Assembly (NCBI RefSeq): GCF_000316665.1 | Contig: NC_019678.1 | Span: 992,001-1,056,000, forward strand | DNA: 64,000 nucleotides | Reading direction: 5' to 3' | Origin: Rivularia sp. PCC 7116 | GTDB lineage: Bacteria > Cyanobacteriota > Cyanobacteriia > Cyanobacteriales > Nostocaceae | In this document: one piece after another, positions 51,581 to 55,668 of the stretch | Position numbering within the stretch: the first letter of the stretch is position 1 | How the letters are laid out: each line of letters starts with the position of its first letter | The notes under the pieces: model-generated | Seen by the model: the letters and a program-made list of their open reading frames with translations, nothing else | What the model was told of the DNA's origin: nothing | The model's database searches: none | Program-made: the position numbers and the translations under genes

Positions 51581-53320
51581 ATGCAGTCAAATAAAAATAA
51601 TCAATCTCTTGTTTCTCAACTTCCCCAATTAAGTGATGAGCAAGTTAAAAGAGATTATTTAAATCATTTTGAGTATACGGAAATTATCGCTGCAATACTT
51701 TCGTTGATTAATGATGTAGAAGCTTTGCGGTTGGTAAGGTTGGCTTTGGATGTTGATTTGATGTTGGGTGCTTTTTTGGCTGGTAAGGTTAAGGCGAAGC
51801 TACAAAAAGTAACTATAGGTTGGATTGAGAATTTAGAAATACTGGATAATTTGAAAATTGAGTTATTAGGTAGAACAAAGTCTGAATTTGCAATTCCTTT
51901 TTTAGCAAGAACATTAAATGAAGAAAAAGAATTAATTAGTGCCAGAGTTGAGATAGATTTATATTTTAAAGGTGAAATCGAAGAAGCACCAGAAGAAGAA
52001 TTATTTTATCAAGCTTACCATTATGAAAATTTAAGTACCCAAACAGCGGATATTTTAGGAAACTTTGGTGGAGAGTCGGCAACAAAGTTGTTAATTACAG
52101 CTTTATCAGATGAGCGTAAATCAGTTCGAGAAAATGCTGTAATAGCTTTGGGAAATATTAAAAATAACTTGGCGATCGCTGCATTAGTTACAGCTTCAAA
52201 AAATGAAGATGATGAAATTAGCTATAGAGCAATTTATGGTTTAGGAGAAATTGGTTCGGATTTAGCTCTAGAAGTTTTAATTAGTGCTTTAGCAGATAAC
52301 AAAAATTATATTGCTGAAGATGCCGCTCGTGCTTTGGGAAAAATTGGTGGAGAAGTCGCGGTAGAAGCGTCAATTCACTTTTTACTTGATGAAGATGACA
52401 GGGTTTGTAAAAGTTGTGCTGCTGCGTTGGTTGAAATTGGAAATGAAAGAGGAATTAGTCTTTTATTTTCATTTCTAAATCGTGATGATGCGAATTTACG
52501 TCAAGCTGCTGTTTATGGATTAAGAGATATCCGCGAAAAGCTTATTTTATCAGCTTTGCTGCCAATGTTGCAGGATAAAAACGTTCGAGTTCGTCGGGAA
52601 GCTGTTTTTGCAGTAGCACATATTATTTCACCACCTGATGCATCTGAAGACGATATCAATCAATTTTCAGAAAACGAAAAAAAATCTGTTGCTGTTGCGT
52701 TGTTAAAAATGCTCGTTGACAAAGATGAAGAAGTACGTCGGAGAGTAGTTTTAGTTTTGGAAAGAATCGCCGATGAATCAATTGCACCTCAATTAATTAA
52801 AGCATTGCAGCATAATAATCCAGAGGTAAGAGCTTGTGCTGCAAGGTTGTTAGGGATTATCGGATATCAAGATGCTGTTAAGAAACTATTTCCACTATTA
52901 CAAGATAAAAACCCTAGCGCTAGAGTAAATGCTGCTCATGCTTTAGCAAAACTAGGTGAAGAATCTGTAATTCCCTTCTTAACTAAAATGCTTGCTGATG
53001 AAAAAAACCCTAGCGCTAGAGAAATTGTGATTCTTGGATTGGGAGAAACTCGAAATCCGATAGTTATTCCAACACTCATCGAAATTCTCAAAGATGAAAC
53101 AAACTCTAGTGCTAGGGAAAATGCAATTCGTGCTTTACAAGATATTGGTGGTGAATCAGCAGAAGCTGCAATAATTGATGTTTTATTGAAAGACGAAGAT
53201 TTTTGCGTTTGCGATAAAGCTGCTTATGCTTTAGGTGCGATAGGTGGAGAAAAATCTGTAATTGCATTGCGTCAAGCTTTATTAAACCGTTACATAAAAC
53301 TTACCCAAAACTACCTATAA
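51581..53320 (+). CDS. HEAT-repeat protein (paralogue of the gene before it), probably lacking its C-terminus
   Basis: Protein of 579 residues built of about 12 HEAT units (ALSDERKSVRENAVIALGNI, NNPEVRACAARLLGIIG). The first 75 residues match the upstream paralogue closely, including EALRLVRLALDVDLMLGAFL encoded by an almost identical DNA block. The last coded residues (RYIKLTQNYL) do not look like a HEAT end, and a C-terminal HEAT tail lies beyond the TnpB element, so the gene seems to have been cut. It starts 15 bases after the previous stop. No catalytic domain; partner unknown. Confidence 0.82.
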   Translation: MQSNKNNQSLVSQLPQLSDEQVKRDYLNHFEYTEIIAAILSLINDVEALRLVRLALDVDLMLGAFLAGKVKAKLQKVTIGWIENLEILDNLKIELLGRTKSEFAIPFLARTLNEEKELISARVEIDLYFKGEIEEAPEEELFYQAYHYENLSTQTADILGNFGGESATKLLITALSDERKSVRENAVIALGNIKNNLAIAALVTASKNEDDEISYRAIYGLGEIGSDLALEVLISALADNKNYIAEDAARALGKIGGEVAVEASIHFLLDEDDRVCKSCAAALVEIGNERGISLLFSFLNRDDANLRQAAVYGLRDIREKLILSALLPMLQDKNVRVRREAVFAVAHIISPPDASEDDINQFSENEKKSVAVALLKMLVDKDEEVRRRVVLVLERIADESIAPQLIKALQHNNPEVRACAARLLGIIGYQDAVKKLFPLLQDKNPSARVNAAHALAKLGEESVIPFLTKMLADEKNPSAREIVILGLGETRNPIVIPTLIEILKDETNSSARENAIRALQDIGGESAEAAIIDVLLKDEDFCVCDKAAYALGAIGGEKSVIALRQALLNRYIKLTQNYL

Positions 53321-53411
53321 CTAGACAAAACTAGACATATATAATTTTGGTGTTTACTTCCTGCTTCAAACTGGGGTAGTCGGCTACTTCCCATCCACAG
53401 GCTGAAACTGT
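53321..53411 (-). ncRNA. Putative omega-RNA / right-end region of the TnpB element
   Basis: The 90 bases downstream of tnpB (minus strand) contain a hairpin at about 53373-53393 (GGGGTAG, TCGG, CTACTTCCC). In IS200/IS605 elements the right end is transcribed with tnpB's 3' part as the guide-bearing omega-RNA. The exact ends are not defined from sequence alone. Confidence 0.45.
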
Positions 53412-54542
53412 CTAACTGACAGCCTTACATAAATTTATTGCAGCGTTTAAATCGCGGTAAGCAGTAAAATTACAGTTCTCACAATCAAAAAGTCTTTCAC
53501 TTAAAGAAAGTATTTCTTTTTTATGACCACAATTAGAACAAGTTTTAGATGATGGAAACCATCTATCTAATACAACTAATTTAGAACCGTACATCTTACA
53601 TTTGTATTCAAGCTGTCTTCTAACTTCATAAAATCCCATATCAGCTATAGCACCGGCTAGTTTATGATTTTTCATCATTCCCGATACATTTAAATCTTCT
53701 ATCACTATCGTTCCGTGGTTCTTGGCTAATAATGAAGTAAATTTATGGATAGTATCTTTTCTGATATTGGCAATTTTTCTATGAAGTCGAGCTATTTTGA
53801 GTTGAGTCTTTCTCGAATTCTTAGAACCAATTATTTTATTGCGATTTAACCACTGCAATCGTGATAATTTCGCCTTAAAAGTACGATATGACTTAGCACC
53901 TTCTATAACTTCTCCTGTTGATAGAGTTGCTAGAACCTTCACTCCTAAATCAATACCTACAACTGTTGTATTATGTAAAGTCTGCGGGACAGAATCCTCT
54001 GTCCCGCGAGCTTTACGGTTTTCTTGGATTTGGGTATCAATTTTAAAACTAATAAACCATCTATCTGCTTGACGAGAAATAGTAACTGATTTTATTTTAT
54101 CTCGTTGAGGTAACTTCTCATATGTTTTTAATTTACCTACTCTGGGAACTTGAATAGTAAAACTATCTATAGTCTTACAAGTTCCCTCTAAAGTAAATGA
54201 ATCATTTTTTCCTTTCTTTTTAAATCTTGGTTGACCGCTAACTTTTTTGAAACATCGTTTCCAAGCAGTAGATAAGTTTCTTAAAGAGTATTGCGGTGCA
54301 GATTTAGAACACTCATAGTACCAAGGATTTTCTGATTTTACTAAAGCTATTAAATATTTATGTAAATCAATCGCACTTGGAAATTTTATTTTAGAATCAG
54401 GATTAATTTTATTATGCTCTAATATTGCGCGGGTTAATGCTAATCCCCAATTCCAAGCATGTCTAGAAACTCCACAATGTTTGAGTAAAACAGTTCTTTG
54501 ATTGTTATTTAATTTTAATTCTGTTTTAAATCCGAGTAACAT
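53412..54542 (-). CDS. tnpB: TnpB RNA-guided endonuclease (IS200/IS605 family, no TnpA)
   Basis: Protein of 376 residues. RuvC catalytic residues are all there: Asp in VVGIDLGVKVLA, Glu in IVIEDLNVSGM and Asp in AYRDLNAAINL. The zinc ribbon is CSNCGHKK with FDCENC. It is a nickase/nuclease guided by the element's own RNA that keeps the element in place. No tnpA is present, so it is a tnpB-only element. A 42-base palindrome (53975-54016) is inserted in frame, adding about 14 residues (KARGTEDSVPQTL) before the first RuvC motif. The element appears to sit in the 3' part of a HEAT gene. Confidence 0.93.
   Translation of the reverse strand: MLLGFKTELKLNNNQRTVLLKHCGVSRHAWNWGLALTRAILEHNKINPDSKIKFPSAIDLHKYLIALVKSENPWYYECSKSAPQYSLRNLSTAWKRCFKKVSGQPRFKKKGKNDSFTLEGTCKTIDSFTIQVPRVGKLKTYEKLPQRDKIKSVTISRQADRWFISFKIDTQIQENRKARGTEDSVPQTLHNTTVVGIDLGVKVLATLSTGEVIEGAKSYRTFKAKLSRLQWLNRNKIIGSKNSRKTQLKIARLHRKIANIRKDTIHKFTSLLAKNHGTIVIEDLNVSGMMKNHKLAGAIADMGFYEVRRQLEYKCKMYGSKLVVLDRWFPSSKTCSNCGHKKEILSLSERLFDCENCNFTAYRDLNAAINLCKAVS
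53975..54016 (-). repeat. 42-bp palindromic repeat inside tnpB
   Basis: GTAAAG-TCT-GCGGGACAGA, loop ATCC, TCTGTCCCGC-GAG-CTTTAC. Its outer ends, GTAAAGTCTGC, equal those of the hairpin at 54736-54776. Length 42 keeps the reading frame. Confidence 0.85.
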
Positions 54543-54852
54543 TGTATATAATTTGCTATTTCAAGTTTTATAAATATAAACCATTTATTTTTATATTATT
54601 AGATATAAACATATCATCCTTCTTACAATTCATTAATAGTGTGAATATTAAAAGTTATTAATTCTTAAAAATTCAATGCGGCATAAAAGGCAATGTTGCT
54701 GGTTCGCCTCAACAACCTTTAAGCATCGCTTTACTGTAAAGTCTGCCGTGGGGAGTATCCCCACGGCAGACTTTACGTAAATATATATTACATACCTAAC
54801 ACCATATCTGGACAAAATGGGTAAATATGTCCATTTATGGGTAGAGATTAGA
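54543..54852. other. Left-end region of the TnpB element and flank
   Basis: About 310 bases upstream of tnpB with no gene. They should contain the element's left end; the exact boundary is not visible. The perfect hairpin at 54736-54776 is here. Confidence 0.45.
54736..54776. repeat. 41-bp perfect hairpin sharing ends with the tnpB palindrome
   Basis: An 18-base arm (54736-54753) starting GTAAAGTCTGCCGTGG is perfectly complementary to 54759-54776 around a 5-base loop AGTAT. It lies upstream of tnpB. Confidence 0.9.
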
Positions 54853-55148
54853 TAACAGTTACCAACCCTAGCGGTGGCTGTGCTTTCGATCCGGTTTTAG
54901 ACACAATCGTTGAAGCTCTGGGAAAAATCGGTAGCGATTCAGCCATAGAAGCGATTTTAGAACCTTTACCAACAGATGCCAGTTTGGATAGCTTCGCAAC
55001 TTTGACATTGTTGAGGTTTGGAAGTTTAAAAATTGTTCCGCAGTTGTGGAACATTCAAATCAAAGCCAAAGATAAAGCTTGTTTTTGCGAAGCTATTGAA
55101 CAAATTCAACAAAGACATCAACATTACAATCCCGAATATTGTCAATAA
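54853..55148 (+). pseudogene. C-terminal remnant of a HEAT-repeat gene
   Basis: After a TAG the frame is open to TAA at 55146 and encodes LDTIVEALGKIGSDSAIEAI, then DKACFCEAIEQIQQRHQHYN and PEYCQ. The end resembles the upstream HEAT paralogue (IEKIQQQHQIYNPKFC). No start codon fits. It is most likely the displaced tail of the HEAT gene at 51581, separated by the TnpB element. Confidence 0.75.
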
Positions 55149-55646: not shown

Positions 55647-55668
55647 GAGACGTAAAATTTTACGTCTC
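55647..55668. terminator. 22-bp perfect palindrome after the zinc-ribbon gene
   Basis: GAGACGTAAAA followed directly by TTTTACGTCTC. It is 38 bases past the stop; there is no spacer loop, so four bases must open if it folds. Confidence 0.55.

What the first reader, a model, noticed from the sequence alone, without database searches (positions are those of the whole stretch)
53975..54776. Palindromic mini-element inserted in frame within tnpB, with a sister copy 720 bases away
The 42-base hairpin in tnpB and the 41-base hairpin upstream share the ends GTAAAGTCTGC but have different inner stems (GGGACAGA versus CGTGGGG). Being a multiple of three without stop, the inner one adds about 14 residues to TnpB before RuvC-I. 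This recalls palindromic elements of Rickettsia that invade coding sequences. A selfish hairpin inside another selfish gene, with a conserved tip and variable stem, may be an undescribed cyanobacterial family.
Basis: partly seen in the sequence, partly recalled or inferred. Interest (0 to 1): 0.7.

Follow-up and report, generated by a model that had tools for sequence, protein, structure and literature searches.

The report
Tiny hairpin element inside transposon genes
A 40-42-letter DNA hairpin that is scattered through genomes of filamentous cyanobacteria has settled, without breaking the reading frame, inside a gene for an RNA-guided DNA-cutting enzyme (TnpB), and relatives of it sit in the same way inside several other protein genes.

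Summary
In detail: a 42-nt hairpin (53975-54016) lies in frame in tnpB, and a 41-nt sister (54736-54776) lies upstream inside the same insertion sequence. They belong to a real dispersed family, G(Y)(R)AAG-TCT-GC-[variable stem]-GC-GAG-CTT(Y)(R)C, 40-42 nt, with covarying stems. A covariance model finds it in 54 of 217 genomes of the host family (E up to 1e-5) and in 8 of 386 drawn from the phylum (E up to 1e-6; seven of those are of the host family). Of 29 fetched TnpB relatives none carries it: 27 have no insert, two have other inserts at the same linker. Three copies nested in other copies show an inserted unit of 42 nt and no net target duplication. Copies inside long open frames are nearly all 42 nt (21 of 23), although only 41 of 82 sites are: frame is kept. 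Host genes include TnpB, RRXRR (IscB-like) proteins, DDE transposases, ThyX, AlkB-like enzymes and a phage tape-measure protein. In the own genome 11 of 13 copies are in or at the edge of transposon genes, several multiplied with their transposon. It works like a Rickettsia palindromic element but is far shorter. Eight literature searches found no description. The enzyme that moves it is unknown.

The parts
53975..54016 (+). 42-nt palindromic element in canonical form GTAAAG-TCT-GCGGGACAGA-ATCC-TCTGTCCCGC-GAG-CTTTAC, in frame inside tnpB; adds 14 residues (KARGTEDSVPQTLH) before RuvC-I
   Evidence: (63.9 bits, the best match of the model in the genome; the sequence is one of the 24 the model was built from)
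54736..54776 (+). 41-nt sister element, perfectly palindromic variant (TCT opposite AGA), in the non-coding left part of the same insertion sequence
   Evidence: (57.9 bits; also one of the 24)
53412..54542 (-). tnpB (376 aa): RNA-guided endonuclease of an IS200/IS605-group element; open, with HTH_OrfB_IS605, OrfB_IS605 and Cas12f1-like_TNB domains; pairwise dN/dS 0.16 against the insert-free relative L016
53287..54863 (-). the insertion sequence that carries tnpB and both hairpins; right end (ATGTAACGG) shared with L016 and L017, left end shared with L016 only; limits approximate
51581..53320 (+). HEAT-repeat gene that runs up to and just into the insertion sequence; a short open frame beyond it (54861-55145) may be its continuation (by eye, no Pfam hit)

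Best explanation
The two hairpins are copies of a non-autonomous mobile palindromic element of 40-42 nt found in filamentous cyanobacteria. SHOWN: the family exists; its stem is maintained by compensatory changes; the unit ends at G(Y)(R)AAG...CTT(Y)(R)C; in nested copies it has gone in without a net target duplication; sites lean towards ATTnnC|GnnAAT; copies inside long open genes are nearly all 42 nt and in frame; copies inside transposons are multiplied with the transposon. INFERRED: an enzyme encoded elsewhere recognises the folded single strand, because the mismatched TCT/GAG loop kept in most copies has meaning only in a folded strand, and joins the element at a C|G step. Abutted element ends (CTTYRC|GYRAAG) look like the preferred target (TTnnCGnnAA), so a circular or hairpin intermediate recombining at CG is the likeliest route. 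A 42-nt copy that lands in a tolerant loop, such as the TnpB linker before RuvC-I, adds 14 residues and survives; the transposon then spreads it.
For: Covariation: 9 of 16 pairs with changes on both sides, score 0.377 against 0.140 shuffled, 0 of 500 (24 mostly intact sequences that I chose). Less selected: of 83 distinct sequences copied from the (partial) listing 32 have at least 6 contiguous inner pairs, against 10.2 mean and 18 maximum for shuffled halves. Boundaries: left/right complementarity is 91, 90 and 86 of 100 at the three outermost positions and falls to shuffle level one base outside (36 against 39.7). No net duplication: in three nested insertions (L139, L144, L196) joining the flanks gives back a 36-nt outer core with 12, 11 and 12 of 12 inner pairs, with both complementary terminal triplets in L144 and L196 and one changed terminal base in L139, so 42 nt went in. 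Empty site: relative L016 is shorter by exactly 42 nt there. Frame: read-through frames of at least 150 aa at 21 of 41 sites with 42-nt copies and 2 of 41 with 40/41-nt copies, Fisher p 3.5e-6; 18 of 38 against 1 of 40, p 2.2e-6, after dropping four doubtful or related sites. Hitch-hiking: tnpB2 in 3 copies, a DDE element in 2, tnpB3 in 4, with the hairpin inside the shared stretch. Target: C at -1 in 54 of 83, G at +1 in 54 of 83.
Against: No mobilising enzyme was identified, and no element-like pair of ends around a gene was found in 1.18 Mb of genome G022. The target preference is weak: both C and G at only 31 of 83 sites. The base at the element's second position correlates with the flanks (43 against 27.5 and 41 against 26.0 expected, 0 of 2000), which could mean a target-derived end rather than fixed ends. 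10 of the 83 sequences and 8 of the 32 hairpins have the symmetric AGA form, the window's sister among them (some are the two strands of one place), so the mismatched loop is not obligatory; 33 of 83 have fewer than 3 inner pairs. Some of the 29 genomes matched hold only matches that are not hairpins by eye (G039, G111, G165, G186, G206), and the reversed-pattern control matched in 12 of 217 genomes. The site sample is biased to high model scores and still holds related sites (L143/L168, L121/L122, L049/L101).
Confidence: 0.8

Rival explanations
1. The hairpin is a working part of this TnpB element (transposon end, guide-RNA structure or regulatory hairpin), not an intruder.
For: Insertion sequences of this group carry functional hairpins near their ends (general knowledge); both copies lie inside one such element.
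Against: 0 of 29 fetched TnpB relatives share it. The same kind of hairpin lies in unrelated genes: DDE transposases, ThyX, AlkB-like, RRXRR, tape measure. Copy 1 is in mid-gene, not at an end. The 8 Rfam matches in the stretch are all below gathering scores.
Confidence: 0.04
2. The element moves through an RNA copy (reverse transcription of a transcribed hairpin), as was proposed for cyanobacterial small dispersed repeats (recalled).
For: Structure conserved on a single strand with covariation; no net target duplication in nested copies; copies inside open genes.
Against: Ends are exact on both sides, with no sign of one-sided truncation in that alignment of ends; no specific search for reverse-transcription marks was made. 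Nothing here separates RNA from single-stranded DNA.
Confidence: 0.25
3. It is a REP-type repeat moved by a RAYT/Y1 transposase.
For: Size and imperfect hairpin fit; REPs in cyanobacteria and REPs inside open frames are on record (PMC3733652, passages seen).
Against: The defining GTAG or CGTC tag beside the hairpin is not in the flank consensus (ATTnnC/GnnAAT). No Y1 transposase search was made.
Confidence: 0.2
4. Copies spread only passively, by recombination between transposons that already carried a hairpin.
For: In the own genome 12 of 13 copies are in or at the edge of insertion sequences (partly by eye), and several are plain copies of one carrier.
Against: Seven separate places in the own genome at different positions in different genes, nested copies, and host-type genes such as ThyX and AlkB-like.
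Confidence: 0.05

Closest known systems
Rickettsia palindromic elements (RPE)
   Same: Palindromic, dispersed, found in frame inside protein genes as well as between genes (PMC2229807, passages seen)
   Different: RPE are 105-146 bp (same passages); these are 40-42 nt, in cyanobacteria, and where the host gene is recognised mostly in mobile-element genes. RPE sequences were not compared.
Small dispersed repeats (SDR) of Nostoc, Elhai et al. 2008
   Same: Very small, structured, with compensatory changes, nested in themselves, in related cyanobacteria (recalled; only the reference was seen)
   Different: SDR are 21-27 nt (recalled); sequences could not be compared because the paper is not held
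RUP of Streptococcus pneumoniae
   Same: Small non-autonomous repeat that appears to target insertion sequences of several families (PMC2229807, passages seen)
   Different: 107 bp, target duplication, TA target, inactivates transposase genes (same passages); here no net duplication in nested copies and often in frame
REP / GTAG- and CGTC-tagged palindromes
   Same: 20-40 bp hairpins in many copies, some inside open frames (PMC3733652, start of abstract, passages)
   Different: No GTAG or CGTC tag in the flank consensus
Palindromic elements of Volvox organelles
   Same: Short selfish palindromes often inserted into one another and into selfish introns (PMC2670323, passages seen)
   Different: In non-coding DNA of algal organelles, other sequence motif (same passages)

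Membership tests
Rickettsia palindromic element | in-frame presence inside conserved protein genes | tested here: met
   21 of 23 long read-through sites have 42-nt copies; Thy1, 2OG-FeII_Oxy_2, OrfB_IS605, RRXRR hits
Rickettsia palindromic element | length 105-146 bp | tested here: not met
   40-42 nt
Rickettsia palindromic element | RPE consensus sequence, in Rickettsia | tested here: inconclusive
   The 13 hairpins with at least 8 inner pairs among 119 genome stretches (a capped list) are all cyanobacterial; the RPE sequence itself was not compared
REP (GTAG/CGTC) | conserved tetranucleotide tag at one end | tested here: not met
   flank consensus ATTnnC/GnnAAT in 83 distinct sites
REP (GTAG/CGTC) | association with a RAYT transposase | not tested
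   no search for Y1 transposases was made
MITE | terminal inverted repeats with target-site duplication | tested here: not met
   three nested sites show no net duplication; terminal inverted repeats are present
Small dispersed repeats (Elhai) | SDR consensus sequences | not testable with these tools
   paper not held
IS200/IS605 end hairpin or PATE | position at the ends of an IS200/IS605 element, or derivation from such an end | tested here: not met
   copy 1 is in mid-gene and other copies are in DDE elements and host-type genes; derivation was not tested by sequence

The most novel reading that the evidence does not exclude
A family of the smallest known protein-invading mobile elements: 42-nt hairpins, most of them free of stops in all six frames, which move as a folded single strand or circle with a CG core and persist by riding in genes of mobile elements, RNA-guided nucleases (TnpB, IscB-like) prominent among them, where they repeatedly insert a 14-residue peptide into loops of an active protein.
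Probability: 0.4. Interest if true: 0.8.

Novelty: new variant of a known kind. Interest (0 to 1): 0.63.

Why it matters
Palindromic elements that enter reading frames are known from Rickettsia, and how such tiny sequences move is an open question. A 42-nt family with exact ends, nested insertions, named carriers and a clean empty site makes the question testable. Repeated in-frame insertions also mark places in TnpB and other proteins that seem to tolerate 14 extra residues, which is useful to those who engineer these enzymes.

Tried and rejected
A loose pattern over genome contigs and viral contigs (both lists capped) returned mostly chance matches: 18 of 119 and 2 of 120 stretches had at least 6 contiguous inner pairs; 4 of the 18 (L156, L186, L229, L260; 6-7 pairs) are from other phyla and taken as chance. 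That rule is strict: true copies with one stem mismatch (for instance L202 Calothrix elsteri, L227 Atlanticothrix, L270 and L285 viral) fall under it but pass the rule. A tighter viral pattern gave 1 contig, another 0. No composite element with a gene between orphan element-like ends was found in 1.18 Mb of G022 (exact end patterns only). Rfam gave nothing above gathering scores. The protein of the four-copy 'tnpB3' has no Pfam or PDB hit; I call it TnpB-like by eye only. The insert seen in L025: 2 copies in G085, none in the 5 other genomes searched, both within coordinates of TnpB matches. The reversed-pattern control was not zero: 12 of 217 genomes, 11 of them of genus g38; none of the genomes with many copies. 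No structure prediction was run. A palindromic target was considered; left and right flanks share composition but do not covary just outside the element.

Full report
OBSERVATION. The window is G000:C1:992001-1056000 of an 8.73-Mb, 3-contig genome. Its size suggests Rivularia PCC 7116 (recalled); a genus mate, G185, has a main contig of 8,952,335 bases, close to the 8,952,435 of Calothrix parasitica NIES-267. The 42-nt hairpin at 53975-54016 and the 41-nt hairpin at 54736-54776 are real. The first lies in tnpB (53412-54542, minus), which is open and has the expected domains. Both lie in one insertion sequence of about 53287-54863; its right end is shared with two relatives and its left end with one.

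EMPTY SITE. Of 29 TnpB relatives fetched (L016-L044, the best ones of 96 of 217 family genomes with a match at E up to 1e-60), none has this insert; 27 have no insert there and two (L025, L040) have other repeat-like inserts in the same linker, between WFISF and VVGxDLG. The nearest, L016 (88% identical protein, same genus), is shorter than the window by exactly 42 nt there. Pairwise dN/dS window to L016 is 0.16, to L017 0.11: tnpB is under purifying selection, though this does not date the selection to after the insertion. The sister has no clean empty site, because that non-coding part does not align well.

A FAMILY. Exact ends give only these two places in the own genome, but 29 of 217 family genomes match, four of one genus (G179-G182) with 41, 20, 41 and 16 matches, both strands counted; the reversed-pattern control matches in 12 of 217, in none of those four, and at least five of the 29 (G039, G111, G165, G186, G206) show only matches that are no hairpins by eye. 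The anatomy: outer stem G(Y)(R)AAG/CTT(Y)(R)C, a three-by-three mismatch TCT/GAG, a GC-anchored inner stem of variable sequence, and a short loop. On 24 chosen sequences the 16 pairs hold in 96.1% of cells, with 9 pairs changed on both sides. On a less selected set of 83, 32 form at least 6 contiguous inner pairs against 10.2 by shuffling; the triplet opposite TCT is GAG in 49, TAG in 11 and AGA in 10, and among the 32 hairpins GAG in 23, AGA in 8, AAG in 1. The TAG group has another right arm (mostly CTGTAGCTTTAC), so arms seem modular. A covariance model finds the family in 54 of 217 family genomes, 20 of 56 genera, at E up to 1e-5 (30 candidates scored per genome, so high counts are floors), and in 8 of 386 genomes drawn from the phylum at E up to 1e-6 (16 candidates scored): seven of the own family, which is part of the draw, and one of another family of the order. 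In 1.18 Mb of G022 the model finds 8 places of at least 40 bits, and one more was cut by the edge of my stretches; the stretches are both smaller contigs and two chromosomal parts, one of them chosen around two known copies, so a density from this is an overestimate. In named genomes the 13 hairpins with at least 8 contiguous inner pairs among 119 pattern stretches (capped list) are all cyanobacterial: Rhizonema, Rivularia sp. MS3, Calothrix parasitica, Scytonema. A viral contig of IMG/VR carries two copies.

EXACT UNIT. Over 100 distinct places, of which 17 without complementary ends include chance matches, left and right bases pair in 91, 90 and 86 at the three outermost positions and at shuffle level one base beyond. 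Three copies sit inside another copy; joining the flanks gives back a 36-nt outer core with 12, 11 and 12 of 12 inner pairs, with complementary terminal triplets in L144 and L196 and one changed terminal base in L139. So 42 nt went in there with no net target duplication. Flanks of 83 distinct sites lean to ATTnnC|GnnAAT: C at -1 in 54, G at +1 in 54, both in 31. The second base of the element correlates with the flanks; I cannot say whether ends follow targets or targets are chosen by ends.

FRAME. At 82 distinct sites (ends complementary and at least 5 inner pairs required) the lengths are 42 nt (41), 40 nt (23) and 41 nt (18). A read-through frame of at least 150 aa with 15 aa on either side exists at 23 sites: 21 with 42-nt and 2 with 41-nt copies (Fisher p 3.5e-6; p 2.2e-6 without L048, L117, L168 and L122). 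In the two 41-nt cases (L121, L122) the frame ends 16 aa after the hairpin; L121 has a DDE_3 hit, L122 was not scanned. 27 of 41 copies of 42 nt are open in all six frames, edge codons not counted. The long frames include OrfB_IS605 TnpB (L001 window, L083, L107, L111, L138, L242), RRXRR (L143, L168; the link of this domain to IscB is recalled), DDE (L045, L128), Thy1 (L144, two insertions), 2OG oxygenase (L123; in L131 the insert lies near the end of such a frame), an integrase Arm domain (L202) and a tape-measure protein (L285); L053, L108, L195 and L244 had no Pfam hit, nor had the doubtful L117; L048 was not scanned. In TnpB the insert is at different places: window linker before RuvC-I, GDAN|GKKSG (L083), SNKA|ENAG (L111), RRVN|KRKRS (L138), near the N-terminus (L107).

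CONTEXT. Pfam was run for 58 of the 82 sites, on the read-through frame or the longest open stretch that touches the hairpin. Not run: 21 sites without a stretch of 60 aa, L048, L122, and one L099 site lost through a key clash in my script. A hit was found at 29 of 58. At 19 it is a transposase, TnpB, RRXRR or integrase family (L049 and L129 below the curated cut-off), at one (L056) HTH domains usual in IS630 proteins (recalled), at 9 something else (two 2OG oxygenases, two in Thy1, tape measure, HTH_Crp_2, two DUF6876, DNA methylase). I have no background rate for transposon genes in these genomes, so this is not a measured enrichment. In the own genome 13 places have E below 0.001 (150 of 1795 first-look candidates scored): eight in TnpB or TnpB-like genes (one window, three tnpB2, four tnpB3, the last named by eye and one of the four a short remnant), two in a DDE_5 transposase frame that the 41-nt insert breaks, one at the edge of a DDE_3 frame, the sister, and one outside any long frame. 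As separate insertions these are seven, five of them in or at transposon genes. Copies of tnpB2 and of the DDE element share sequence for at least 97 bases on either side of the hairpin and then diverge; two tnpB3 copies match a third to the left end of the fetched stretch, and the fourth diverges 153 bases out. So transposons moved, or were duplicated, with their passenger.

MECHANISM. Insertion without net duplication, exact ends and a mismatch kept in most copies point to recognition of a folded strand by a protein acting in trans. Likeness of abutted ends (CTTYRCGYRAAG) to the target (TTnnCGnnAA) points to joining at a CG step. These two steps are inferred. The rest (presence, unit, frame, hitch-hiking) is shown. 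I found no mobiliser and no autonomous relative.

KNOWN KIND. In behaviour it matches Rickettsia palindromic elements. RPE length and in-frame fusions and the RUP comparison are from passages of PMC2229807, REP features from passages of PMC3733652, Volvox palindromes from passages of PMC2670323, IS605-derived palindromic elements (PATE) of an archaeon from passages of PMC3119063. The SDR paper was not held, so SDR statements are recalled. Searches (six 11-mers of the element; 19 papers, none on cyanobacteria by its title) gave no description of this family in the listings that I saw; this covers open-access papers only.

Noticed in passing
L025 (G085) and L040 (G086), tnpB linker: Two other TnpB relatives carry different in-frame repeat-like inserts (about 15 and 33 residues) at the same linker; the hairpin in L025 occurs twice in G085, the second time inside the coordinates of another TnpB match. 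The linker looks tolerant of inserts.
   Followed up: partly
L144 (G179), thyX: A Thy1 (ThyX) frame holds two in-frame element insertions, one of them nested in a further element; the frame is open over 597 aa of the fetched stretch.
   Followed up: partly
G179-G182, listing: Some copies have another right arm (CTGTAGCTTTAC, or AAGAGCGCGAG...) on the common left arm, as if arms were exchanged between subfamilies.
   Followed up: no
L087-L090 (own genome, four places): A variant hairpin GCGAAGTCTGGTGGGGGAAGTTTCCCCCACCGAGCTTCGGC sits near the C-terminus of a multi-copy, TnpB-like gene without Pfam or PDB hits; the frame is 540 aa at three places and 110 aa at one.
   Followed up: partly
L285 and L384 (IMG/VR 3300036390_000001, 74 kb): A viral contig carries two copies, one in frame in a 1972-aa tape-measure frame.
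   Followed up: partly
G022: boundary of L414/L415, L417, L425, L430: Four near-identical copies lie in one context, TGCGCAGCGCC-element-CCCCTTAGGGG (one base different in one), perhaps within another repeat.
   Followed up: no
window 55647-55668: A separate palindrome GAGACGTAAAATTTTACGTCTC to the right of the insertion sequence.
   Followed up: no
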